From Limnochorda pilosa (GTDB lineage: Bacteria > Bacillota > Limnochordia > Limnochordales > Limnochordaceae), in NCBI RefSeq assembly GCF_001544015.1, contig NZ_AP014924.1, positions 496,001 through 560,000 on the forward strand: a DNA stretch of 64,000 nucleotides, in the 5' to 3' direction. Positions 1 through 13,675 of the stretch are shown piece by piece (position 1 is the stretch's first letter; each line of letters begins with the position of its first letter). Made by a program: the position numbers and the translations under genes. The notes under the pieces were generated by a model. The model saw nothing but the letters and a program-made list of their open reading frames with translations. It was not told the DNA's origin and did not search any database.

Positions 1-2110
1 GCAGATCGTAGTGAGCGTTATCCGCCGGAACGTAGAGAGCTAGGGCCGTCGTTTCCAGCGAATTGGGTGCATCAGGGACCTCCAGTCGTATGATGTGCAC
101 CTGGAGCTGCACACGGTTCCCGTGCAGACCGCTATCTCCGGGATAGTACTCCGGGTCGTCGAGTGATCTCCCGGGTGACCGGCCCTGCATCGGGTTGATT
201 CGACCGTTATCCAGCTTTGTCCGCCTCCGTGGACGACCGCCGGACATCAGTAGGACATCCAGGTTCGGCAAGGCGCCCGCAACAAAGAGCCTAGTAAGAA
301 ACTCGTTGGTGTAGGTTGCCTCCCAGTCTGTTCCGTCCATGTCAAGCCGCCCAAGGAGGTCATGAACGACCACGGTGGTATCGCAGTTGGCCAAGAGGTG
401 GTGCTCAACATTGCCAAACTGATGGGCCTGCGGCCTATGAACAGAGAAGAACCGGACCACGTGCGCGACATTCTGCTGCGCTCGAACCGGGTCTTCGACA
501 ACAATCTGCTGCACGTCCCAGCCCTGGCCTCTGAACTGCCGATAACTCGCAACAGAGGATCGCGTAGGGCGCAATCCCATAGATATATCCAGGCTAAACA
601 TACGCGGCCACTCTCGAATTGACAGGCCCTGGCGCTCATTGCGCCTTAGAGCATCCCAGAAGTCGTCCTCGTGCTGAAGAAGCTCAGTGTAGTCGCGGCG
701 CAGTTGCGGTGGAAGGAAGATGCGACACAAGTCAAGGTATGACTCCTTGTACCCAAACCACCGCGCCCGCTGCTCGAGGGTGTCAGCGTTGGTCTCAGTC
801 CTCGCGCGGCGTGTGATGTAGCTTACAGCCAGGCCATCAATAGTGACGCCTCGTCCCAGCATGTTCCCTCCGACAAGGATGTTATTGCGCAAGCGAAAGG
901 AAGTTCGAATAGGATCACTACCAACGGGTAGGCTATTCACCAGCCAGACTTCGACAGCCAATTCATTTGGAAGCTGTTGTCGAACGCTTGCCCAGTCTGG
1001 GATATGCTCAACTGTACGACTGAGGTCATCGTAGCCTTGGCGAAAGAGCGCATCCAACTCTACTAGCGCGGGATCGGTGGAAGGCAGTGTAAGGTTACTA
1101 CGCCAGAGAGATAGCAGATTGCGAACTGCCTCGTGCATACGTCTGTGACTCTCGCGCCGTTGTGCAGTATGAATCAGCATAGCGTGCCGGCCTTGCGGCT
1201 CTCGCAAATGGCGTACCGCGGCTCCAACTAAAAAGGTTGCTATCGCCAATCGGAGCGATGCAGGTATTCCTTGGGAGTCCTCATCATCAGCTTCGTCAGC
1301 AGGGATATCCCTGACATACTGGTCCTGGTCTTGCCCGAAGAAGACGCCGCCTCCGCAGTAGCCGCTGCCTGGCTCAAGCAGCACGCCGAAATCAGGTGAC
1401 AGTCCATCAATGATGGGGATCAAGAGGTTGGCCTGTGGAGTTGCTGTGTAGGCAACATAAGCATGGTGTGGGAGCTCGTCCCTTAGTTCGAGAATGCCTC
1501 TGTAAACGGCCGACATCCTCCCACGCCTGAACTGGGTGTTGAGAGAAGCCTCATCGCCTTCGTCATCTATGATCAGCATCGGGTAATTGTCCAACTCGGG
1601 GTCCCCAAGAATACGCCGGAGGTTGGCGAGGCGCGTAGGGTTCTTGAGCGTGACGAGGACGGCACTTCCAGCTTGGTTTACCACACCTTGAATGACATCT
1701 AGGTCGGGTGGCGTTGGGTTCTTGAAGGCCGCAAGAGATAGTCGATTCGCCCCAAGATCATCACAGAGTCGGTTATACGTCTGCTCAAGCAGCGTCTGCT
1801 TTGTGCCAGAGAGTACCGCGATGATGCGGTAGCCATTATCGATCGCAAGTGCTATGAGGCTTGTGTACGAGAGGGTTTTCCCACTCTGCACCTTACCCAG
1901 TGCCAAGCCCGTAGACCGGTTAGGTGGTCCCTGAGGACTGGGACAGTAAGCCAACACTGTACCGGCGGTTGTGACTACGCGCTGCCAGTCAGCGTCGCTG
2001 ACGCGATCAGCATACACTTGGCGGAGGCGCTGGATTTCCGGACCGTCCAAGCGCACCGCAGAGTGAGGTGATGGCACCAAGGGATCCAAGCCCGCACGAT
2101 TAGTCTCCAT
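1..2110 (-). CDS. Z1-domain superfamily II helicase/ATPase of a defence operon (C-terminus beyond window)
   Basis: I read this frame from the sequence: 703 codons are open and the stop lies beyond the left edge. Walker A is GKVQSGKT (about residues 72-79). The Walker B/DExD region is IIDDEGDEAS (180-189), followed by YTATPQANLL (221-230). The motif V/VI-like elements are NMLGRGVTIDGL (416-427) and QRARWFGYK (447-455). These are the hallmarks of the Z1 family found in predicted restriction systems, where it is thought to act as the translocating motor. The ATG overlaps the upstream ATPase stop by 11 nt, so the genes are translationally coupled. In known relatives a PD-(D/E)XK nuclease gene often follows; that position is outside the window. 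Base composition is less GC-rich than the metabolic genes. Confidence 0.88.
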   Translation of the reverse strand, partial: METNRAGLDPLVPSPHSAVRLDGPEIQRLRQVYADRVSDADWQRVVTTAGTVLAYCPSPQGPPNRSTGLALGKVQSGKTLSYTSLIALAIDNGYRIIAVLSGTKQTLLEQTYNRLCDDLGANRLSLAAFKNPTPPDLDVIQGVVNQAGSAVLVTLKNPTRLANLRRILGDPELDNYPMLIIDDEGDEASLNTQFRRGRMSAVYRGILELRDELPHHAYVAYTATPQANLLIPIIDGLSPDFGVLLEPGSGYCGGGVFFGQDQDQYVRDIPADEADDEDSQGIPASLRLAIATFLVGAAVRHLREPQGRHAMLIHTAQRRESHRRMHEAVRNLLSLWRSNLTLPSTDPALVELDALFRQGYDDLSRTVEHIPDWASVRQQLPNELAVEVWLVNSLPVGSDPIRTSFRLRNNILVGGNMLGRGVTIDGLAVSYITRRARTETNADTLEQRARWFGYKESYLDLCRIFLPPQLRRDYTELLQHEDDFWDALRRNERQGLSIREWPRMFSLDISMGLRPTRSSVASYRQFRGQGWDVQQIVVEDPVRAQQNVAHVVRFFSVHRPQAHQFGNVEHHLLANCDTTVVVHDLLGRLDMDGTDWEATYTNEFLTRLFVAGALPNLDVLLMSGGRPRRRTKLDNGRINPMQGRSPGRSLDDPEYYPGDSGLHGNRVQLQVHIIRLEVPDAPNSLETTALALYVPADNAHYDL

Positions 2111-3644
2111 GATTCACCTCAATCTCAGACGCGCGTCGAAGGATCTTGTTCATGTAATTCCTGAAATCACTAGGCGCAACAAGACCATTAGAAGAGGTCT
2201 GCCGTGCCATCTTTTCAGCTAGGGCAAGGGCCAATACGAATGTCTGCAGGAGTTCCAGGAACTCTGGTCGATGCAGATACGGTGCAAAGAATGGGTGCGC
2301 CATATTGAGGAAGACGTGGATCTCGTGATCCTGCGGATAGTGCACGTGCATCCAGTGCGCTTCGCTCAGTTGGTCTTGCCAATGCAACTTGAAGGTCCAG
2401 GTATCGGAACCAACGTCTAGACTGTACTGCACGGGCCCGGCGCTAACATCCCGAAGCTTCACGACGTCACGCGTCTCCTCTACTTCCCTTGCAGGTGGAT
2501 CGGGGAACTTCAGTTCCTGTGCGATCGCTGAGCCAAAACGGGTATCAGTGAAAACACGCCGCGGTCTTTCCGATGCAAACTCCATGTCGCTGCTGCTGAC
2601 TGAGCGGCCACGCTCACGGTATCCCTCAGCCCTGTCCATGTAATCCTGACATGCGCTCTTGAGAGCATCTATGAACGCGTCCTCAAGCCCTCCCGACCAG
2701 TCAAAAGCGTCCTTAGCCTGAGTAACGGGCCATTCGTCTAGGTGAAGCTCGCCGACCAGTCGTTGAGAACGAAAAGTGTTGCCCTGTCCGAAAATCTCAG
2801 TCGGCTTGTAGCCCTCACCAGGCCCGCCTACCACGACACGCCCCCTCCGGAGGAGAGCAAAACCCGCGTCACGCTGGTTACCGGGTATGCGTATCCCGAC
2901 CCACCCGGTGACGCGCAACGGTGAACTCGCTAGCTCGGCCGGCACCACGAAGGAGAGTGGTTTTCGCCACGTAATCCGCTCGCCGTCGACTTCTTCCTCC
3001 AGAATAGGGGGCTCTTGGAAGCTAATGGGTCCTCCGTTCCAAAGAATCTCGATCTCACCAGACCGCAGGTCTTGACGGTACATGCTACCGAGTTGATCTC
3101 TGATGCGCGCCGGTGTGCGACCACGAATGGGTTTGTACAGTCCCTGAATAGCGATAACAGTGTAGTGGCTAGAACGCGGGGCGCTGCGCTCTATGATGTT
3201 CAGGGACTCGTACTTGCGATCGATAAGGTCGGGAACATGCACGGTTACCTCGAGTTCGCTGGGCTCGTCCAGTCGAGTGGTTCGGATTGTCCAGGTGCTC
3301 CCAAACCAACATGCTGCCGTCTTGAGACCCATCCCGTACTCACATCGCCCGGTTCGATTTGGCGGGGGGCTGTCAAGCACTACAGCCCTGGTCAACTCCT
3401 CAACATTCATCCCATGCGCGTTATCCCGGATGGTGAGACTGTTCGCATCGGCGTCGTAAACGACTTCAATGTGGAGATGGTCTGGGTCTTCTCCACGATA
3501 GGCCTCGAGTAATGCCTCGCGGTGGTCGAAGTAACTCTGAGTCGCATTGTCCATGAACTCCGCGATGGCGTACCAGGGCTTGTAGCTAAGCCTTCGATAC
3601 GTTGCATAGACGCTAACTGCCGGGCGGATATTGACGGTGGTCAC
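2100..3644 (-). CDS. MORC/MutL-like GHKL ATPase of a restriction-type operon
   Basis: A GHKL (HATPase_c_3-like) ATPase of 514 aa from the GTG start. The N box is AEFMDNATQSY near the N-terminus. It is followed by DNAHGM about 45 residues later (the DxGxG equivalent) and then EYGMGLKTAA as the G2 lid. The C-terminal 250 residues are not recognised; in MORC relatives this region is an S5 fold plus a variable part. Such ATPases are known to sit beside cytosine methyltransferases and Z1 proteins, where ATP-gated DNA clamping is the proposed job. I chose GTG 3644 because it overlaps the methyltransferase TGA (GTGA) and has AGGGCG just upstream; an ATG six codons earlier is the alternative. No nuclease motif is visible. 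Confidence 0.85.
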   Translation of the reverse strand: MTTVNIRPAVSVYATYRRLSYKPWYAIAEFMDNATQSYFDHREALLEAYRGEDPDHLHIEVVYDADANSLTIRDNAHGMNVEELTRAVVLDSPPPNRTGRCEYGMGLKTAACWFGSTWTIRTTRLDEPSELEVTVHVPDLIDRKYESLNIIERSAPRSSHYTVIAIQGLYKPIRGRTPARIRDQLGSMYRQDLRSGEIEILWNGGPISFQEPPILEEEVDGERITWRKPLSFVVPAELASSPLRVTGWVGIRIPGNQRDAGFALLRRGRVVVGGPGEGYKPTEIFGQGNTFRSQRLVGELHLDEWPVTQAKDAFDWSGGLEDAFIDALKSACQDYMDRAEGYRERGRSVSSSDMEFASERPRRVFTDTRFGSAIAQELKFPDPPAREVEETRDVVKLRDVSAGPVQYSLDVGSDTWTFKLHWQDQLSEAHWMHVHYPQDHEIHVFLNMAHPFFAPYLHRPEFLELLQTFVLALALAEKMARQTSSNGLVAPSDFRNYMNKILRRASEIEVNHGD

Positions 3645-5035
3645 GGAGCGCCCTTCAGGCATGCCAGTCGATCCCCCCTCGGCGCGGCGGACTCCACAGT
3701 GGTGGATTCCACAACAGGCTCTTCTTCGTGAAGTGAGGGTACCGCCGCGAACAGAGACCGTTGCTGTTCTGGTGCCTCGAACAAAGCACGACCAACCAAC
3801 TCTGCGACGGTTACATTGACGGCGTTCCCGAGAGCCTCATAAGCCTTGCTAGGCCTGTCGGGCAGGTTAGGCAGGTCTTCCATGCTTTGCAGTCGCTTAC
3901 ACTCGGTAGGAGTAATGTAACGTCTCTCCCACCCAATGATTGGGACCTGCGTAGAAGTCATTGCAACCAATGATGGGGATGTTGTTGGTCGCTTGAGCCG
4001 CACGCCTGAGGCGCGGATCTGGATAACACAACGATCGATTCTGCGGGGATAGTCTTGTTGACAGTTCCATTCGAGTTTCTGAAAGCTTGACGGGAACCGC
4101 GCGATCTTCATCTTCCATTCATCCAACCAATTCCGATGCCGCGCATAGAACTCGCGATTCTTACGTATGAATCCTACTTTCCACTTGGGAAAGCGTTGTT
4201 GCTGGGACCGGGCGTGTGAAGGGAGCAAATCGAAGACGTCTTCGCGCGTCCGGCCAGTCAGCTGGTACCCTAAGGAGCCTGTATACCGCCAGAGGGTTCG
4301 AAGAGGTGTCGCAAACGGCGTTCTCTCCTCGTAGGGGTAAGTAGCGCCGAATTCCATCGCCCACAGTGGATGCGGGACTTTCTCATCTCGTGGAAGCCAG
4401 TCGAGCAATTCCTGCCATACTTCTAGGCATTCGGCGACGTGTTGCGGAATCTTCCGCGCATCGGGTGGGTTATGGTCCAGAACGTCTCGAATACTTGAGG
4501 GCGGTACAGTTTGGTCCGGCTGCGGCCACTTGAATAGGTCGAGACTGTGTCGGCTTGCGACGATGTATATGCGTTCACGAATCTGGGGAATGCCGAAATG
4601 ATGTGGCGACAGCTTCGTGCTCCGCACGTCATACCCCTCTGTGCGAAGCAACCGTTCCGCAGTCCCCCACGTCCGTCCGTGGTTGTGGCGCTCGAAGTTG
4701 GGGACGTTTTCGAGGATCAGGTATGGCGGGCGATGATAGCGAATCAGGCGAAGTATTTCATAGAGGAGGTCTCCAGACGTGGGGTCGTCGAAGCCGTTCT
4801 GGCTCCCTGCTTTGGAGAAAGGCTGACACGGGAATCCGGCGCAAAGAATGTCGTGAGACGGGATATCCTGTGCCGTAACTGCCCGAATGTCTCCGGCCAC
4901 GGGCAGACGGAAGTTCTGTTCGTAGAGCGCACGAAGAGTTGGATCGATCTCGCAAGCGAAGACACAAGTATGTCCGAGGCGGCGCATAGCGAGATGGAAG
5001 CCACCAAGGCCTGCAAAGAGATCGATGAACTTCAT
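3641..5035 (-). CDS. DNA (cytosine-5-)-methyltransferase
   Basis: A C5-cytosine methyltransferase of 464 aa. Motif I is DLFAGLGGF (residues 5-13) and motif IV is GFPCQPFSKAGS with catalytic Cys70. Motif VI is LILENVPNF (106-114) and motif VIII is QIRERIYIVASR (151-162). Motifs IX/X are PTECKRLQSME and ALGNAVNV near residues 370-406. The roughly 190 residues between VIII and IX hold the target-recognition domain, so the site cannot be read from sequence. It is the first gene of a tightly overlapping operon with the MORC-type ATPase and the Z1 helicase, which argues for host-site protection rather than an orphan enzyme. No Vsr-type repair gene is evident next to it. Confidence 0.95.
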   Translation of the reverse strand: MKFIDLFAGLGGFHLAMRRLGHTCVFACEIDPTLRALYEQNFRLPVAGDIRAVTAQDIPSHDILCAGFPCQPFSKAGSQNGFDDPTSGDLLYEILRLIRYHRPPYLILENVPNFERHNHGRTWGTAERLLRTEGYDVRSTKLSPHHFGIPQIRERIYIVASRHSLDLFKWPQPDQTVPPSSIRDVLDHNPPDARKIPQHVAECLEVWQELLDWLPRDEKVPHPLWAMEFGATYPYEERTPFATPLRTLWRYTGSLGYQLTGRTREDVFDLLPSHARSQQQRFPKWKVGFIRKNREFYARHRNWLDEWKMKIARFPSSFQKLEWNCQQDYPRRIDRCVIQIRASGVRLKRPTTSPSLVAMTSTQVPIIGWERRYITPTECKRLQSMEDLPNLPDRPSKAYEALGNAVNVTVAELVGRALFEAPEQQRSLFAAVPSLHEEEPVVESTTVESAAPRGDRLACLKGAP

Positions 5036-5073
5036 GTACGTTCGCGTCCTTCCTCTAGAACGGACTCCCGGTC

Positions 5074-5103
5074 ATAATGTTGCTAACCCAAAGTCCTGTG
5101 CAA
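5074..5103 (-). promoter_or_regulatory. Candidate promoter of the methyltransferase operon
   Basis: On the minus strand TTGCAC (5103-5098) and CATTAT (5079-5074) are separated by 18 bp. Each hexamer matches the sigma-70 consensus at four of six positions. It lies about 40 bp before the methyltransferase ATG, with GGAAGGA as a possible ribosome binding site. This is pattern matching only. Confidence 0.3.
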
Positions 5104-5555
5104 CTAAGCGACTGCACTCTGGACCGCTCCGACTTCGCACTCTGGACTGCCCGGTGCCCGTACCGCCTTGCGACAGGCCTGACACAACAACAGGAATCGG
5201 GCTGATGGGCGTGGGCCGCCCCCGAATCCTGCCTCTTTGGGCTACGGATTCTCGTTCGCTCGCGTGAATCCTCCTTCTGTGCGGGACGCCGCAAAGCCCA
5301 GTGGGACCGGCCCTGGAAGACGACTGTGTCCATTGCTGGGAGCGCCACTCACGATCGGCACTGGACAACGCTTCCCAGTCGGTACAGCGGTCCGAGAGCC
5401 ATCCACCCGGCGATCCTCAAGACGACGCTCATGCACCCGGCGTTTCTGGCTATGACTGGAACCGTGGTAGCCTCGGCACGCCCCCCACGGTGAAACGCTC
5501 GACCGCTTCCAATTGACTGCCGGTCGCTTCAAGGCAGGTACCTCCAAGAGGAGTA
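5104..5555. other. No recognisable gene between regulator and methyltransferase
   Basis: All six frames are short and compositionally unlike the neighbouring genes. I looked specifically for Vsr, HNH and small-regulator motifs and found none. It may be a decayed gene or a long upstream region. Confidence 0.4.
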
Positions 5556-5669
5556 CTACGAACTGCGAGAAGTATCGGGTGTGGCGTCTGAGACCGACGT
5601 TGCCAAGTCCCGGAGGATTACTGCCAGGCGTTCTGTAGCCTCAGCCAGGTTGAGCAGTGCACCCGCCAT
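5556..5669 (-). CDS. Possible 37-aa ORF, in frame after the XRE stop
   Basis: An ATG-started ORF of 37 codons (begins MAGALLNLAEATERLAV). It lies in the same reading frame as the XRE gene, eleven sense codons after that gene's TAA. It has an amphipathic, helix-like start. It could be a separate small protein or the former C-terminal extension of the XRE regulator cut off by one stop codon. No clear ribosome binding site, so existence is uncertain. Confidence 0.22.
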   Translation of the reverse strand: MAGALLNLAEATERLAVILRDLATSVSDATPDTSRSS

Positions 5670-5702
5670 GTCCACTGTTCGATCTTCGCGGTCTGTGCGG
5701 CC

Positions 5703-5903
5703 TTAAATGGCTGTATCATCGAGGAGTGCAGCTACTGGCATTCCCAATCGTTCAGCGAGATACTCTAGGGTGTCCAGCGACGGCGCCACTCTATCATTCT
5801 CGATCTGGCTGATCATAGACTTGCTAAGCCGGTTTCCGGCAAGTTCCTTCTGCGTTAGGCCGCGGAGTTGGCGGGTCTTCCTTACACGGCTTCCCAAAGA
5901 CAC
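5703..5903 (-). CDS. XRE-family helix-turn-helix regulator
   Basis: A 66-aa protein that is essentially one Cro/C1-type helix-turn-helix domain. The signature runs LTQKELAG, then SKSMISQIEND and PSLDTLEYLAERLG. Such single-domain proteins usually bind as dimers to short palindromes. The start is GTG, with AGGAG nine bases upstream. It lies upstream of, and in the same direction as, the methyltransferase-MORC-Z1 operon, about 670 bp away. That placement fits a controller of methyltransferase expression, as C proteins do in restriction-modification loci, but the gap makes this an inference. Confidence 0.85.
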   Translation of the reverse strand: MSLGSRVRKTRQLRGLTQKELAGNRLSKSMISQIENDRVAPSLDTLEYLAERLGMPVAALLDDTAI

Positions 5904-6124: not shown

Positions 6125-7370
6125 CTACCATGAGTGGGCTAGAAGTTGGAATTGAAGCTTTCCGGCGTTCAGGTAAGCCATCGCGAGGAAGTTGGCGTCG
6201 GAGCGGTAGCCGCGGGCCCGGGCTTTGGCGGCCTGGAGGAGGCTGTTCATCCCTTCCAGCATGGCGTTGGTCAGCCGGTGTTCGAACCAGGCGAGGACAC
6301 CCTCCTGGTGCTGCCTGATGGTCTTGGCCACGCGGATCATGGGCTCGAGGCGGCTGTGGGTCGCCCAGAAGTACCATCGCTTCAGGAAGGCCTCTTCCGT
6401 CGCCCGATCCGGTTGCTCGAAGAAGTCCTGGAGGCTGAGCTTCATCTGGTAGGCCTGGGCCGTCTTCAGGTGATGCTGGCGCAGGCTCTCGAGCTGTTGG
6501 CTCTGGCGCGGCTTCAGGCTGCTGGGGTTCTTCAGCCACAGCTAACGGGTCTTCTTGAGGAGCGGGTTGGTCTTCACCTCGTCCCGCCGGACCTCGTCGA
6601 CGGCGTCGTTGGCCAGCTTCATGATGTGGAACCGGTCAAGGGTGATCCGGGCGTTGGGGAGGTACTCTTGGGTCCCGTGGATGTAGGCGGGCGACATCTC
6701 GCAGGTGACCTCCGCGATGACTTCCGGGTTCCCCCCGTGCCTGGCCAGATGGCCAGCGAAGGCGGCCACTGTCCCTCTGTCCCTGCCGGAGGTCCCAAAG
6801 ATCATGCGAACCCGCTCCAGGTCCAGGAAGAGGGTGATGTAGTGGTGCCAACGCCGGCTCGCCGTCTCGTCCACCCCCACCCGCCGTACCTCCGAGAGGT
6901 CCTGCCTTTCGACCGCCTCCGCGGTGTGGTGGCGGATGATCCTCCAGAGCCGCGTGTCGTGCTCACCCACCATCTTCGCCAGGGCGTTGACCGGCATCTC
7001 ACGGGCCATGGCGACGATCATGGCCTCGAAGAGGAGGGTGAAGCCGCTCCCGGGGCGGCTCCAGGGGACCTCCACCTGGTGATCGCCGCGCATTGGGGGC
7101 ATTGACCCGAGGGACCCAGGCGTGGAGGTAGCTGCGGTGCTCGAAGAAGTTGAGGTTCCGCCAGGCCTTCTCAGCGGTGTCGTACCCGCCCCCTCAGCGC
7201 CGCAGCGGGGCAGGCGAACTCGCGCCCCGTTCGAAGTCCACCCAGAGATGGAACTGCTTCTCTTCCGGGGAGAACTGGACCTTGACCACCTTCCAGGGCG
7301 GTACCAACCCCAGGGCCACACTGAACAGCGACTTGCTGTCGTCTCGGTTGGAACGCCGACGCGGGGCCAT
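6125..7370 (-). pseudogene. ISL3-family transposase, broken by two frameshifts and a stop
   Basis: The pieces read as one ISL3-type (DDE) transposase. A zinc-finger N-terminus starts at ATG 7370 (MAPRRRSNRDDSKSLFSVAL). Frame is lost near 7195-7210, where a CPxCG-like element is split, and again near 7100. The DDE core is open from there (DETASRRWHHY, DRFHIMKLAND), then a TAG at about 6542-6544 replaces the Tyr expected in TRYLWLKNP. The C-terminal part (RLTNAMLEGMNSLLQAAKARARGY) is open to 6125. Possible imperfect ends sharing GGGT...ATGAGTGG lie near 6116 and 7567, but I could not define them well. Three independent lesions mean the copy is dead. Confidence 0.85.
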
Positions 7371-7407
7371 CTCTCTGCCTCCGGACCCCCAGGGCCCTCC
7401 ATCGTAC

Positions 7408-7480
7408 CGCTCGTAGGCTGCGGCGCCAAGGGTTCGCCTCCGGCCGCCTTCGCCGCCCTTGACGCCGCAGCCTACGAGCG
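7408..7480. repeat. 25-bp inverted repeat (24 of 25 paired) around a 23-nt loop
   Basis: The arms are 7408-7432 and 7456-7480 and differ at one base; the loop is GC-rich. The arms contain TCGTAGGCTGCGGCG. There is no U-tract on either side, so it is not a canonical terminator. It lies just outside the broken ISL3 transposase start and may be a relic of a miniature element or an IS end. Confidence 0.75.
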
Positions 7481-7751: not shown

Positions 7752-9464
7752 TTAACCCCAGATTTTGCACGGGTCCCTTCGATGGACGAGAATCGAACAC
7801 GAGATCGTGAGGAATAGAGTGCTGTTGACGGTAATTTGCTCTGCAAGCTGGAAATATGAGCCGCTAGGCGCCATGAGGAAGGCGGTGCACGGTGCAGGGA
7901 GATGGGCGAAACGGCGTGAGCAACGGGGCAGAGGGCGCCAGAAGGACGCGGCTGCCCGAGCCACCTGCTCCCAACGGTAGCTGTCGCACCTTGCCGGCAG
8001 CGTTCGGAGTACGCTATGTACTCAGAGCGAGCCGGACGGCCTCCCAGGCTGGCCGGTGCACCCAGAGCGCCGGCAGGCGGAGGGTGAGCCGCCGTGCGTG
8101 GCGCACCAGCAAGGCCGGTACCCGGAGCAAGGTCCGTTGCAGGCGGGTCGCGGTGTAGTGGCGATAGGGCGCCGGGGCCAGCACCTTCAGCCGGAGCAGC
8201 AAGTTGTAGGCGATGCCCTTGATCAGCAGGTCCGCCGCATTGGGCCAGAAGGTGGCCTTGCCGATGGAGTCGATGCCGAGCCCCTCCTTCAGCTCCTTGA
8301 TCCCGTTCTCGGCGGTGCAGCGCTGATTGTAAAAGTGCCAGACGTCCTCCTCGTCCCAGTCCTCGCTGGTGAAGATCGCCTGGTACTCCCAGGCGGACGC
8401 TTCGAAGAGCAAACGCTGGGCGGGCTCGAAGGAGGGCCCGGGTGCCCTCTGGGCGCGGATGAAGACCACCCGCCGGCTCCGCTTCCACCTGGGAGCCTGG
8501 TAGGTGACCGAGGCGGCCTCGATGATCGGCTCGTCGCTGCTCGCGAGCCGCCGCCACGCGAGAGGCTTGAAGACCTGGCTCTGCAGGTGCGGGTTCAGCC
8601 TCAGCTTGAGGGCGTAGGCCACCTTGTGGCCCGTTCGCCTCTCCTCGGCCTCCAGCTCCTCCAGCAGGGCTTCCGTGCCGAAGTGGGCGTCTCCTCGGAC
8701 GAAGCGGACCGGGAAGCCCTCCGGGAGCTGCTTCTTGGCTTGGAAGCGGATGACCTCCCGGGCGTTCGGGGTCTTCCCCGAGCGCAGGGCAGCGTGCAAC
8801 AGCGCCCGGCTCTGCCCTTCGAAAGCGACGAAGGGCTGGTAGCTTCGCCGGCCATGGTAGCGGGGGTTGTAGCCCACGGCCGTTCCCTGCTGGCGGCCGT
8901 GGACCGTCTCCACGGTGTTGTCGATGTCTACGATGGCCCCACCGCAATTCCGGAGGAGAGGGTGGAGCATCTCCCGGTGGACACCCTCCAGCCCCGCCAC
9001 CTCCCGGCGGCTCCCGAAGCGATCCAGCGCCCGGTAGCCGGTGGCGGGGTGGGGCAGCTTCTTCAGCCGCAGCTTGGCCGCCAGGAGCGGGTCGTGCTTC
9101 AGTTCGGCGGTCTCGACGATACGGCCCATCCCCAGGGCGGCCTTCAGGATCAGGTACTCCACCTCGGTGGTCCGGGAGTAGGTGGCCCACAGAGACTTGG
9201 GGGTGAGGTGCCGCTCCAGGCACTGAGGGAGCCCGAGATGGTCGAAGAGGTCCACCAACAGGTTCGCCCCGCCGAACGCCGTGAGACCGTGTTTGTCGAA
9301 GCGCTCCTCGATCTGCGGTGCGGGGAAGGACATCAGGGGGGAAGCCGTCGAATCGTTCACCCGGAAGGTGCGCCTTTCGTTGTTTGGATTTTACCCACAA
9401 AAGAACTTCGCGGGGCACCTTCCCATCTCCTTCCTAAAAAAGCCTGCTGCGAAATCTCGGTTAA
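7752..9464 (-). mobile_element. IS1380-type insertion sequence
   Basis: The element holds one transposase gene. I find an imperfect terminal inverted repeat: TTAACCCCAGATTTTGCA at 7752-7769, and TTAACCGAGATTTCGCA on the minus strand at 9464-9448. The 1.7-kb size suits the family. No target duplication could be confirmed at these coordinates, so the ends may be off by a few bases. Confidence 0.6.
8014..9360 (-). CDS. IS1380-family transposase, apparently intact
   Basis: A DDE transposase of 448 aa, full length for the family. The first acidic region is AIVDIDNTVETVHG, the second is VRFVRGDAHFG, and the C-terminal signature YNQRCTAENGIKELKEGLG carries the conserved Y/R/E pattern. The C-terminal 110 residues are Arg/Leu-rich as usual for this group. 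The frame has no interruption and codon use matches the GC-rich host, so the element may be recent or still active. It separates the defence operon side of the window from the duplicated acetyltransferase block. Confidence 0.9.
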   Translation of the reverse strand: MNDSTASPLMSFPAPQIEERFDKHGLTAFGGANLLVDLFDHLGLPQCLERHLTPKSLWATYSRTTEVEYLILKAALGMGRIVETAELKHDPLLAAKLRLKKLPHPATGYRALDRFGSRREVAGLEGVHREMLHPLLRNCGGAIVDIDNTVETVHGRQQGTAVGYNPRYHGRRSYQPFVAFEGQSRALLHAALRSGKTPNAREVIRFQAKKQLPEGFPVRFVRGDAHFGTEALLEELEAEERRTGHKVAYALKLRLNPHLQSQVFKPLAWRRLASSDEPIIEAASVTYQAPRWKRSRRVVFIRAQRAPGPSFEPAQRLLFEASAWEYQAIFTSEDWDEEDVWHFYNQRCTAENGIKELKEGLGIDSIGKATFWPNAADLLIKGIAYNLLLRLKVLAPAPYRHYTATRLQRTLLRVPALLVRHARRLTLRLPALWVHRPAWEAVRLALST

Positions 9465-9534: not shown

Positions 9535-10378
9535 CGACAACAACACTTACCACCCCCCACTTCTGCGTAGCCGCCCCGCCGGCGCTTCCTGGGCTCGCTC
9601 CGTCCCTAGAAACCCTAGCGCTGACCCGGCCGGGAGCCCCCGCCGCCACACCCACCCACCCGCGGCGCGTCGCCGACCGCCGCTGGCGAGTAGGCATTGG
9701 CCCGGACCAGCTCAATGCCCGCGGGGACCTGGCCTTCGCCCCGCCGGTTCACTCTGGCCCCGGCGGACCAGCTCGTATGACGGCTCGTCCGAGTGGTCCG
9801 GTGCCGAGGACGACAAGTCGCGCCTGAGAGTTGGTCATGGATCGCTCCTTCTCGGCGCCTGCAGGCTCTCCTACGTCGTGCGGCCTGCGGGAGACTGCCC
9901 CGTCGGGTAGAGCTCGAAGCGCAGGCTCCCCGGCTCCTCGCCCGGGCCCACCCGGTGGAAGCCGGCCTTCTCCAGGACGCGGATCGACGGCCGGTTGCCT
10001 GGTATGGCCTCGGCCACGGCGCGCACGACGCGGGCCGCCCGAGGACCCACCCCACCGGGGCCGTCACGATTTCGGGCGGGTAGGCATGCCCCTGAAACGC
10101 CTCCAGCACCGCGTACCGGACCTCCACCGCGCCGCCCCGGAGCGGTCGCTTGAAGCCGCCGTTCGCCACCAGGAGGGCCTGTTCCGGCTCCCCGTCCCCA
10201 GCAAGCCGTACCGGGCGTACCATCCCATGCCGGCCGGATCGACCTCGAGGCGTGCCAGGAGAAAGGGAAGGGCGTCGGCCAAGGTCTCCCGAGGCCACGC
10301 GTCAAGGACTACCGCCCGCAGCATGGGGGCCAGTCGCTCGCGGCCGGCCATCTTCGCCCGTACAAGGAAGGCCGGCAT
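9535..10378. repeat. Segmental duplication, copy 1 (decayed)
   Basis: This stretch matches about 12989-13675 in the same orientation, including the sequence downstream of the acetyltransferase (shared CACCCCCCACTTC... and GCGCTGACCCGGCCGG). Copy 1 carries about 150 bp (roughly 9636-9785) that copy 2 lacks. Divergence is in the order of one base in ten by eye. Confidence 0.75.
9871..10378 (-). pseudogene. GNAT acetyltransferase relic (copy 1)
   Basis: The relic aligns along its length with the intact GNAT at 13157-13711. The N-terminal part (MAGRERLAPMLRAVVLDAW) is in one frame. After a shift near 10205 the middle (GEPEQALLVANGGFKRPLRG) is in a second frame. After another shift near 10045 the C-terminal part (NRPSIRVLEKAGFHRVGPG) is in a third. 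The acetyl-CoA loop is also altered, with EAFQGHAYP in place of EAFQGRGYA. It cannot make an active enzyme. Confidence 0.8.
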
Positions 10379-10877: not shown

Positions 10878-11519
10878 ATGTCTCCGAGAATCAGTGAGCA
10901 GAAGCGAGAGGCACAGGTTGAACGCATTCTTGAGGCGGCAAGACGATGCTTTGCGCGCAATGGATACCAGAGTACCACCCTAGAGGAAATCAGCATTGAA
11001 GCTGGCCTCAGCAAGGGTGGAATCTACACGTACTTCGCGACGAAGGAAAGCATCTTTCTCGCACTTTCCCGAAAGGCTCATGCCGCCAAACTCGACGCCT
11101 TACGAGGGACATACGACGAGCGAGACGACGCTTTGCAGAGAATCTTAGCTATGTGGCATCGCATTATCTGGTCTTGGGAATCGCTAGAGGACCAAACCAG
11201 GGTCTCCTGGGAGTTTTGGTACCACGTTTCCAGACAGCGAGATGCTGGATTGCTGCGAGTTCTGGAGAAGCAATATGACGACCTCGCCAGACTGTTCAGG
11301 GACGCACTGGAAGAGGGTATCAAGCGCGGTGAATTGGACGCCTCCCTCGACGTGGACATGGTGACACGAGTATTCTGGGTATTAACAGATGGACTCGTGG
11401 GCTACTGGCTCGCGAGGAATCAAAGGCCCTCGACCGCTGAGCTAACCCGCGTCGAGAGAGTGATCAGCAGACTTGTCAGGCGCTCACTGCCGGCGGCGGG
11501 CGACACAGCCGAGCGTTGA
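10878..11519 (+). CDS. TetR/AcrR-family transcriptional regulator
   Basis: A 213-aa repressor-type protein. The N-terminal TetR helix-turn-helix spans about residues 12-60, with the signature FARNGYQSTTLEEISIEAGL followed by SKGGIYTYFATKE. The C-terminal ligand domain resembles TetR_C_6-like proteins (REGELDASLD-type segment at GELDASLDVDMV). AAGGAGG sits nine bases before the ATG. It lies 36 bp upstream of an MFS exporter on the same strand, so it probably represses its own operon and is released by a drug-like ligand. Codon use is less GC-biased than in the flanking genes, pointing to acquisition together with the exporter. Confidence 0.93.
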   Translation: MSPRISEQKREAQVERILEAARRCFARNGYQSTTLEEISIEAGLSKGGIYTYFATKESIFLALSRKAHAAKLDALRGTYDERDDALQRILAMWHRIIWSWESLEDQTRVSWEFWYHVSRQRDAGLLRVLEKQYDDLARLFRDALEEGIKRGELDASLDVDMVTRVFWVLTDGLVGYWLARNQRPSTAELTRVERVISRLVRRSLPAAGDTAER

Positions 11520-11555
11520 GTGTTCTCCACGTGGAGGGAGAGGCGGAGGTCGTCC

Positions 11556-12857
11556 ATGACTCAGGCGCAGCAAGGGAAGTACCCTACCCCTGAGGGCTGG
11601 TACACGATCATCCGCCTTCCAGGTTTCGGCCAACTCTGGGGCATACATCTGCTGACATCTGTCGCAGGGCAGTTCCACATCCTTGCACTGACCTGGATTG
11701 CAATTGAACTTACCGGGTCTGAAGCTGCGGCTGGTGCCCTCCTGATGATGAGTGCCATTCCCCGGGCAATTCTGCTACCCGTTGGGGGGGCAATAGCGGA
11801 CAGGAGCCCTGCCACAAAAGTGCTCACATGGACGCTGTCGGTACTAGCCGTGCTTGCTGGGTTGCTTGGCACGGTGCTTAGTCTTGCACGACCTTCTGTA
11901 TCGCAAATCGGGCTGCTTGTATCTGTCTTTGGGATTGCCGTGGCGATGTACTCGCCAGCCGCGTTTGCAGCAGTCGCTCCGATTGCGGGGCGGGAAAACC
12001 TACAAACAGCAAACGCCTTGATACAGTTCACGACGCAGGCGGGGCCCTTCCTTGGGTCACTTGCAGCGACGGCCGCTTTTGCAACAGTGGGACTTCGCGC
12101 GTCCTACCTTGTAGTCGCGTGCTTGCTTGGTATTGCAACACTGCTTGCTGCCAACCTCGGTAGATTCGATACATCATATGCAGATCAACATCCGCCAACA
12201 TCTAGCGAGGATGACATGGTTGGGGCCCAGGCGAAGGGCCGCGCAAGGTTCGGAAGCATCATGAGGTCGGTAGAAGTCATCCTCCTGCTGCTAACCTCTG
12301 CCGCCATCAACTTGAGTGTTGTCGGGCCGCTCCAAGTCGGCCTCGCGGGGCTGGTCCGCAACGGGTCGGGTACTGGGCCAGAGATGCACGGTGTCTTTGT
12401 GGCTGTATTCGGCCTAGGGTCCCTGTTGGGATCAGCGGTCCCTGCCCTGGTCCTCGGGAAGACTGGTACTGATCGCCGCATCTATCGATGGCTGACTGTG
12501 CTTGGTGCACTTTGGGTGTTCGTTGGCAAGGATACTGGGGCTGTAACTACAGGCGCACTCCTCTTTGGATCTGGAGTCTGCGTCGCCGTCGTTAGCGTCT
12601 TGGTGATATCAAGAATCCAGGGGGTGGTACCGGCCGCGGTGTTGGGTCGTGCTATGGGTATTCTCCTTGTTGCGTCCACGGGGTTGCAGCCTCTGTCCCT
12701 GTTATTGGCGGGCTACGGATCAGAGTGGATTGGACCAAGCCGGCTTTTCCTTATCAGCGGTGTTTTTGCTGCTGCTGTGGGATTGGCTTGTCAGGCAATC
12801 AGTATCCGAACAGATGCGAAGATGAAAGCCTCGTCTCGAGAAGGAGCGGAGTCCTGA
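11556..12857 (+). CDS. MFS exporter (EntS/MFS_3-like)
   Basis: A 433-aa membrane protein with about 12 hydrophobic segments and a central cytoplasmic loop (about residues 210-240). Family-typical features are FGQLWGIHLLTSVAGQF in TM1, the loop 2-3 equivalent GGAIADRSPATKVL, and a second-half ISRIQGVVPAAVLGRAMG. The pattern resembles EntS-type multidrug or siderophore exporters. I chose ATG 11556, preceded by GGAGGT, over a GTG at 11520 that abuts the TetR stop. The TetR neighbour implies inducible efflux; the substrate cannot be told. Confidence 0.88.
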   Translation: MTQAQQGKYPTPEGWYTIIRLPGFGQLWGIHLLTSVAGQFHILALTWIAIELTGSEAAAGALLMMSAIPRAILLPVGGAIADRSPATKVLTWTLSVLAVLAGLLGTVLSLARPSVSQIGLLVSVFGIAVAMYSPAAFAAVAPIAGRENLQTANALIQFTTQAGPFLGSLAATAAFATVGLRASYLVVACLLGIATLLAANLGRFDTSYADQHPPTSSEDDMVGAQAKGRARFGSIMRSVEVILLLLTSAAINLSVVGPLQVGLAGLVRNGSGTGPEMHGVFVAVFGLGSLLGSAVPALVLGKTGTDRRIYRWLTVLGALWVFVGKDTGAVTTGALLFGSGVCVAVVSVLVISRIQGVVPAAVLGRAMGILLVASTGLQPLSLLLAGYGSEWIGPSRLFLISGVFAAAVGLACQAISIRTDAKMKASSREGAES

Positions 12858-12988: not shown

Positions 12989-13675
12989 ACAACATCACCC
13001 CCCACTTCCGCGTGTTGCCTTGCCAGCGCTTTCCGGGTTCTCTCCGTCCCGGGAGACCCCAGCGCTGACCCGGCCGGAGCGGTCCGGTGCCGAAGACGAC
13101 GTGTCGCGCCTGAGTGTGGGTCATGGGTCTCTCCTTCGCGGCGACTGCAGGGTCACCTACGTCGTGCGGCCGGCGGAAAGTCGCCCCGTCGGGTGGAGCT
13201 CGAAGCGCAGGCTCCCCGGCTCCTCACCCGGGCCCGCCGGCTGGAAACCAACCTTCTCGAGGACTCGGATCGACGGCCGGTTGTCTGGCATGGTCTCGGC
13301 AACGACGCGCTCGACGCCGGGCCGGCGGAGGGCCCACCCCACCAGGGCCGTCACCATCTCGGTCGCGTAGCCACGCCCCTGAAACGCCTCCAGCACCGCG
13401 TACCCGACCTCTGCCACGCCGCCCCGGGGCGGTCCCTTGAAGCCGCCGTTCGCCACGAGGAGGGCCTGTTCCGGCTCCGCCGTGCGCACCAGGCCGTACC
13501 AGGCGTACCATCCCACGCTGGCCGGATCGGCCTCGAGGCGTGCCAGGAAGAAGGGGAGGGCGTCGGCCAAGGTCTCCGGAGGCCACGCGTCGGGGACCGC
13601 CGCCCGCAGCATGGGGGCCAGTCGCTCGCGGCCGGCCATCTCGGCCCGCACAAGGGTGGCTGTGGCCGGCACCAG
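12989..13675. repeat. Segmental duplication, copy 2 (with intact gene)
   Basis: Same orientation as copy 1 at about 9535-10378, so the two copies are direct repeats bracketing the TetR-MFS segment. The shared part covers the acetyltransferase gene and about 170 bp beyond its 3' end. Confidence 0.75.

What the first reader, a model, noticed from the sequence alone, without database searches (positions are those of the whole stretch)
1..5903. Methyltransferase-MORC ATPase-Z1 helicase operon with an XRE regulator: a probable anti-phage system
Seen: four same-strand genes, three of them overlapping, with intact C5-methyltransferase, GHKL and Z1 motifs, in sequence of lower GC next to two transposases. 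Known: MutL/MORC-type ATPases with Z1 helicases and methyltransferases were described by comparative genomics as unusual restriction systems (work of the Aravind group), and few have been tested. Inference: methyl-protected self DNA, with ATP-gated clamp (MORC) plus translocase (Z1) and a nuclease just beyond the left edge. The mechanism is not established.
Basis: partly seen in the sequence, partly recalled or inferred. Interest (0 to 1): 0.72.

Follow-up and report, generated by a model that had tools for sequence, protein, structure and literature searches.

The report
Methylation-guarded restriction operon with repair enzyme
A jumping-gene-flanked gene cluster probably lets a bacterium mark its own DNA with methyl groups and destroy unmarked invading DNA, and it carries, in a spot where related clusters often have a different repair enzyme, a gene that probably fixes the mutations this marking causes.

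Summary
In detail: three overlapping minus-strand genes encode a C5-cytosine methyltransferase, a MORC-type GHKL ATPase and a Z1 helicase, in 57% GC DNA against 68% around, beside two transposases. The operon runs past the left edge. Z1 is complete (710 aa). Then comes a gene nobody predicted: a MutY-like HhH-GPD glycosylase whose best solved relative is Mig.Mth, the T:G mismatch glycosylase that repairs deaminated 5-methylcytosine. It has Mig, not MutY, specificity residues.

The order Dcm-MORC-Z1-nuclease recurs in 60 of 83 relatives across many phyla and matches the third MORC operon type of Iyer et al. 2008: a known kind, predicted but apparently untested. New is the glycosylase in the place where relatives carry Vsr. 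It recurs in the same slot in four Chloroflexota/Bacteroidota-labelled operons, upstream of Dcm in another, and beside MZA-like and DISARM-like loci. The XRE gene is not a conserved part. Anti-phage activity is unproven. Best reading: an ATP-dependent restriction-modification defence system carrying its own repair enzyme for 5mC deamination.

The parts
3641..5035 (-). C5-cytosine DNA methyltransferase (Dcm), first gene of the operon; the only C5 methyltransferase found in the 3.82 Mb genome
   Evidence: Pfam DNA_methylase 4.2e-65; both genome-wide PF00145 hits fall in this gene; motifs
2100..3662 (-). MORC-family GHKL ATPase
   Evidence: HATPase_c_3 2e-13; S5 motif GFALLRRGRVV; AF2 model pLDDT 90.5, best PDB matches MORC3, then MORC4, SMCHD1, MORC2 and TRAP1
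1..2110 (-). Superfamily II helicase with Z1 domain; its stop codon is 22 bp left of the window (710 aa in all)
   Evidence: Z1 8.1e-42; complete, ends at L002:17978; Walker A/B, TATP and DTLEQRARWFG motifs
1..1 (-). Pointer only: the operon continues LEFT of the window. DUF4420 PD-(D/E)XK nuclease at G000:C1:494911-495981 (L002:16911-17981, minus strand, overlaps Z1 by 4 bp), then Mig.Mth-type HhH-GPD glycosylase at G000:C1:493936-494664 (L002:15936-16664, minus strand, 246 bp further)
   Evidence: Nuclease: PF14390 2.6e-18, E152/D178/K191 in 58 of 58 relatives, AF2 pLDDT 90.4, residues 141-325 align to Hjc, NhoI, DpnI, SPARDA nuclease, EcoRV. Glycosylase: best PDB hit 1kea 9.3e-38 against 1e-27 for MutY, Mig residues, outside the MutY clade
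5703..5903 (-). XRE/HTH_3 regulator-like gene, 66 aa; membership of the system not supported by relatives
   Evidence: HTH_3 7.8e-11; no same-strand counterpart upstream of Dcm in 83 relatives
6125..7429 (-). ISL3-family transposase, split in two frames; right boundary of the low-GC island
   Evidence: DDE_Tnp_ISL3 in two ORFs
8014..9360 (-). DDE_Tnp_1_4 transposase
   Evidence: Pfam 2.7e-54

Best explanation
A horizontally acquired, ATP-dependent restriction-modification system. The Dcm methyltransferase marks a cytosine-containing site on self DNA (inferred; site unknown). DNA lacking the mark is recognised; the MORC ATPase dimer is proposed to close on DNA as a clamp, the Z1 motor to hydrolyse ATP and move or remodel the complex, and the DUF4420 nuclease to cut (inferred from family chemistry). 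The last gene encodes a Mig-type glycosylase that removes T from T:G mismatches left when 5-methylcytosine deaminates, doing the job Vsr does in related operons (inferred from homology, residues and gene position). Shown here: gene content, order, intact motifs, conservation, fold-level matches and Mig-type residues. Not shown: any activity.
For: All four core genes lie together in 60 of 83 MORC-retrieved loci in many bacterial phyla and archaea. The set matches the third MORC operon type of Iyer et al. 2008, PMC2292703, including the S5 motif and the Z1 motif. Nuclease: E-D-ExK residues and PD-(D/E)XK fold matches. MORC fold. Glycosylase: Mig.Mth is the best hit; A50 and L187, which distinguish Mig from MutY (PMC2714593), are both present, while the genome's own MutY (C1:2674337) has V and Q. 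The glycosylase gene overlaps or lies within 6 bp of DUF4420 in L017, L018, L019 and L157. The genome has one C5 methyltransferase and no Vsr. Mig.Mth itself sits beside a 5mC R-M system on pFV1. A Z1-motor R-M system, CglI/NgoAVII, restricts with ATP hydrolysis (PMC4267653). Operons of this type on contigs called viral fit mobile defence cargo.
Against: No activity tested. 246 bp separate the nuclease and glycosylase genes in this genome, so co-transcription is not certain here. Most relatives have neither Vsr nor a glycosylase next door, so the repair gene is optional. No locus has both repair genes, but with 5 and 15 loci that absence is not statistically informative. The genome also has three UDG-family hits that might repair T:G. 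Tyr126 also occurs in MutY proteins, and L018 (Ser) and L069 (Arg) lack Ala at position 50.
Confidence: 0.72

Rival explanations
1. The complex is an epigenetic or selfish element that methylates and perhaps remodels DNA, maintained by post-segregational killing or gene regulation, with little role against phages.
For: Flanking transposases and a foreign GC content fit a selfish mobile element; no phage data exist for this form.
Against: A conserved nuclease with intact active-site residues and an ATP motor are costly for mere regulation; the distantly related MZA system, with the same ATPase, Z1 and nuclease classes, is curated as anti-phage.
Confidence: 0.13
2. The glycosylase is an effector: it excises bases from non-self or modified phage DNA, and the abasic sites recruit the MORC-Z1-nuclease complex, in the manner of base-excision restriction.
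For: Restriction by base excision exists (PabI family, PMC10273834); the glycosylase travels with the operon between distant hosts.
Against: PabI has an unrelated fold; the closest characterised relative, Mig.Mth, is a repair enzyme; the gene is missing from most relatives of the operon, and Vsr, a repair enzyme, takes the same place in others.
Confidence: 0.1
3. The glycosylase is an unrelated MutY paralogue that happens to lie next to the operon.
For: 246 bp gap and a slightly higher GC3 (0.65 against 0.60-0.62) in this genome.
Against: Same gene in the same slot in L017, L018, L019 and L157, overlapping or within 6 bp of DUF4420; A and L instead of V and Q; outside the MutY clade.
Confidence: 0.05

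Closest known systems
MORC / Z1-helicase / novel restriction endonuclease operons, third type of Iyer, Abhiman and Aravind 2008 (PMC2292703)
   Same: MORC with the GhXhhpXXRhl S5 motif, SFII helicase with the Z1 DThhQXuRhFG motif, adjacent RE-fold protein with E-D-ExK, cytosine methylase; sporadic, horizontally spread distribution.
   Different: Their text names Vsr as the accessory repair nuclease and nowhere mentions a glycosylase; here a Mig-type glycosylase is in that place.
MZA (MzaABCDE) anti-phage system
   Same: GHKL ATPase (MzaB), Z1 protein (MzaC) and PD-(D/E)XK protein (MzaD) classes.
   Different: Scores are far below the NCBIfam cut-offs (141 of 1500, 15 of 850, 16 of 420); no MzaE in the genome and no MzaA over cut-off; Dcm and glycosylase are extra.
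CglI / NgoAVII ATP-dependent restriction-modification systems (PMC4267653)
   Same: 5mC methyltransferase plus DEAD-Z1 motor plus separate nuclease; methylation controls restriction.
   Different: Their nuclease is a PLD-B3 protein and no MORC is described among their three genes; here a DUF4420 nuclease and a MORC ATPase.
Mig.Mth, T:G mismatch glycosylase beside the R-M system of plasmid pFV1
   Same: Closest solved relative (1kea, 9e-38), same specificity residues, no MutY C-terminal domain, next to a 5mC methyltransferase.
   Different: Here it is the last gene of a MORC-Z1-DUF4420 operon rather than beside a simple Type II R-M pair.

Membership tests
Iyer 2008 MORC operon, third (Z1) type | MORC-specific S5 motif GhXhhpXXRhl | tested here: met
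   GFALLRRGRVV at residue 267; 82 of 83 full-length MORC proteins match
Iyer 2008 MORC operon, third (Z1) type | SFII helicase with C-terminal Z1 domain, DThhQXuRhFG motif | tested here: met
   Pfam Z1 8.1e-42; DTLEQRARWFG at 443
Iyer 2008 MORC operon, third (Z1) type | Adjacent RE-fold protein with E-D-ExK residues | tested here: met
   DUF4420 2.6e-18; E152, D178, E189, K191; PD-(D/E)XK nucleases lead the fold list, Z up to 6.7
Iyer 2008 MORC operon, third (Z1) type | Frequent cytosine methylase | tested here: met
Iyer 2008 MORC operon, third (Z1) type | Frequent, but not defining, Vsr endonuclease | tested here: not met
   No Vsr in the genome; the place is taken by a Mig-type glycosylase. 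Vsr is absent from most relatives too, so this does not exclude membership
Eukaryotic-type MORC ATPase fold | GHKL plus S5 module closest to MORC structures | tested here: met
   AF2 pLDDT 90.5; the top five Foldseek hits are MORC3, E down to 4e-17
MZA system | MzaB, MzaC, MzaD over curated cut-offs, with MzaA and MzaE | tested here: not met
Mig.Mth-type T:G glycosylase | HhH-GPD domain with four [4Fe-4S] cysteines, no MutY C-terminal domain | tested here: met
   242 aa; C216, C223, C226, C232 invariant
Mig.Mth-type T:G glycosylase | A50 and L187 (MutY: V and Q), Y126, D144 | tested here: met
   residues defined in PMC2714593
Mig.Mth-type T:G glycosylase | T:G (U:G) excision activity | not testable with these tools
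   needs purified protein
MutY adenine glycosylase | Val and Gln specificity residues and C-terminal domain | tested here: not met
   outside the MutY clade; 242 aa, ends just after the iron-sulphur cysteines
CglI/NgoAVII | PLD-B3 nuclease partner of the Z1 motor | tested here: not met
   The nuclease gene is DUF4420
Anti-phage defence system | Reduces phage plating | not testable with these tools
   needs an experiment

The most novel reading that the evidence does not exclude
Mig-type glycosylases are a general, swappable module of 5mC-based, helicase-driven defence loci (MORC-Z1, MZA-like, DISARM-like), and in some of them act not only in repair but in sensing or attacking foreign DNA through mismatch or abasic-site formation.
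Probability: 0.12. Interest if true: 0.8.

Novelty: new variant of a known kind. Interest (0 to 1): 0.5.

Why it matters
MORC-Z1 restriction operons were predicted in 2008 as the prokaryotic kin of eukaryotic MORC chromatin proteins, and no test of this Dcm-MORC-Z1-DUF4420 form turned up in the searched literature. A compact, complete five-gene example lets the question of what MORC ATPases do on methylated versus unmethylated DNA be asked directly. The attached T:G glycosylase suggests that defence by 5mC carries a mutational cost heavy enough for operons to bring their own repair, solved at least twice with unrelated enzymes (Vsr and Mig).

Tried and rejected
Vsr remnant between XRE and Dcm: the small ORFs there have no Pfam match, and no Vsr exists in the genome. 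RNA element in the XRE-Dcm gap: none over Rfam thresholds. Membership of MZA: below every cut-off. Sequence search of the MORC and Z1 proteins against solved structures: no hit. Foldseek on the nuclease model: nothing significant; the VIA second look put PD-(D/E)XK nucleases first, but Z stays under 8, so it supports the fold only together with the residues. Statistical exclusion of Vsr and glycosylase: 5 against 15 loci, too few to test. Thermophily as the reason for a Mig enzyme: host temperatures were not established, so not claimed. A literature search by Mza gene names gave only unrelated papers. No PADLOC model hit the MORC or the DUF4420 protein.
Full report
CHECK. The window is G000:C1:496001-560000 of a single-contig 3.82 Mb genome. 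Dcm and MORC overlap by 22 bp, MORC and Z1 by 11 bp. The XRE gene is 667 bp upstream of Dcm and overlaps nothing. GC of the operon is 0.57 against 0.677 in the window beyond 14 kb; GC3 is 0.60-0.65. An ISL3-type transposase broken in two frames and a DDE_Tnp_1_4 transposase follow on the right; a DUF4277-type transposase region lies on the left.

BEYOND THE LEFT EDGE. The flank was fetched. Z1 stops 22 bp outside the window at 710 aa. Overlapping it by 4 bp is a 356-aa DUF4420 protein (PF14390, 2.6e-18). In an alignment of 58 such proteins E152, D178 and K191 are invariant, and position 189 is E in 52 and D in 6, the E-D-ExK pattern of the PD-(D/E)XK superfamily. The AF2 model has mean pLDDT 90.4. 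Foldseek finds nothing significant, but the second-look aligner lists Hjc resolvases, NhoI, DpnI, the SPARDA nuclease, EcoRV, SwaI, HincII, SfiI and BglI as the best 35 rows over residues 141-325, Z 4-6.7. Next, after 246 bp, is a 242-aa HhH-GPD protein.

THE GLYCOSYLASE. Its best solved relative is 1kea, the G-T mismatch enzyme of Methanothermobacter (9e-38), ten orders of magnitude better than any MutY. PMC2714593 states that V45 and Q182 mark MutY, and A50 and L187 the corresponding places of Mig.Mth. The window protein has A and L there, with E42, R46, R47, Y126 and D144 of Mig.Mth; the genome's own MutY (L012, C1:2674337) has V and Q. In a tree the 12 long MutY proteins form one clade (100/99), and with two shorter MutY-type ones another (99/99), both excluding it. 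Tyr126 is shared by both groups, so it is not diagnostic. In a sample of 398 genomes of the same phylum, among the best matches those with non-MutY residues had a C5 methyltransferase within the fetched flank in 4 of 6 cases, those with MutY residues in 0 of 14 (hypergeometric p about 0.003 by hand; the flanks are only about 1.5 kb). Named plasmids show the same neighbourhood: pFV1 with mig itself, Caldicellulosiruptor pCALKR01, Thermus pTthSNM6-6d, Natronobeatus and Halobaculum; Gloeothece does not.

RELATIVES. A scan of one genome per species with a MORC alignment gave 80 loci. With three more (L005, L006, L015), 83 loci were annotated with profiles built from the window genes. Z1 is within 200 bp of MORC in 76, Dcm within 200 bp in 74, DUF4420 within 5 kb in 63, and all together in 60. 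They span Pseudomonadota, Bacillota, Bacteroidota, Chloroflexota, Actinomycetota, Spirochaetota, Thermoplasmatota and others. Repair genes: Vsr within 6 kb in 15 loci, the glycosylase in 4 plus the window, never both; with such numbers the absence of both is not significant. In L017, L018 and L019 (MORC 64-66% identical) the glycosylase ORF overlaps DUF4420. The next-nearest relatives (MORC 55-57%) are archaeal and have no glycosylase; L021 has Vsr (in broken frames) in that slot. L069 has a more distant glycosylase upstream of Dcm. In a sample of 400 genomes of the phylum of L018, the six best glycosylases (E at most 1e-66) are L018, L019, a further complete five-gene operon (L157), an MZA-like locus with MzaC, MzaD and MzaE homologues plus Dcm (L160), and two loci with a helicase and an MZB-domain (DrmB-type) protein, one of them with DISARM-like DrmA, DrmB and a DrmMII methyltransferase (L158, L159). 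These were ranked by similarity to the operon's own enzymes, so the MORC operons are expected; the MZA-like and DISARM-like loci are the informative part.

MECHANISM. Shown: composition, order, intact motifs, conservation, MORC fold (best PDB matches MORC3, also MORC4 and MORC2). Inferred: Dcm marks self; on unmarked DNA the MORC dimer closes, Z1 uses ATP to move or remodel, and DUF4420 cuts. A precedent for a Z1 motor coupled to restriction is CglI/NgoAVII, where cleavage needs extensive nucleotide hydrolysis and Z1 domains dimerise the motor (PMC4267653). Inferred: the glycosylase removes T opposite G after 5mC deamination, the role Vsr has elsewhere. The genome has one C5 methyltransferase and no Vsr, but three UDG-family hits might share the task.

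KNOWN OR NEW. The core is the third MORC operon type of Iyer et al. 2008, with MORC and Z1 signature motifs and the RE-fold neighbour. It is not MZA by curated cut-offs. That paper lists Vsr and has no occurrence of 'glycosylase' in its text. Searches of the open library found no report of Mig-type glycosylases in these operons; most subscription papers are not held, so this is weak evidence of novelty. Verdict: a new variant of a known, apparently untested kind.

LIMITS. All function is inferred. Source organism and growth temperature were not established. The MAG label of L017 (Bacteroidetes) may be a binning error. The XRE gene is probably incidental.

Noticed in passing
window 9791-10367 and 13077-13655: A 579 bp stretch repeated at 87.6% identity, each copy in a GNAT-acetyltransferase-like ORF region on the minus strand, flanking a lower-GC pair of a TetR-like regulator and an MFS-like transporter (10878-12857). 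Names by eye, not by profile.
   Followed up: partly
window 8000-9462; second copy at L002 about 1719-2708: The DDE_Tnp_1_4 transposase has a degraded copy (86-88% identical) on the other side of the operon, about 24 kb away.
   Followed up: partly
L160 (G458:C6): MZA-like MzaC, MzaD and MzaE homologues followed by a C5 methyltransferase and a Mig-type glycosylase.
   Followed up: partly
L158 and L159 (G630, G495): Mig-type glycosylase next to a helicase and a DrmB-type protein, with DISARM-like DrmA and a DrmMII-type methyltransferase in L159.
   Followed up: partly
L101 (Halobaculum plasmid): Mig-like gene, C5 methyltransferase and a large overlapping 'ATP-binding protein' that might be another GHKL system.
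   Followed up: no
L129-L138 (IMG/VR contigs): Dcm-MORC-Z1-DUF4420 operons on contigs called viral, several close to a contig end, suggesting prophage cargo.
   Followed up: partly
window 5036-5702: About 670 bp without a recognisable gene or Rfam element between the XRE gene and Dcm.
   Followed up: partly
L002 6144-7034(+): ORF whose first part resembles the NucS C-terminal nuclease domain (1.7e-5), about 9 kb left of the operon.
   Followed up: no
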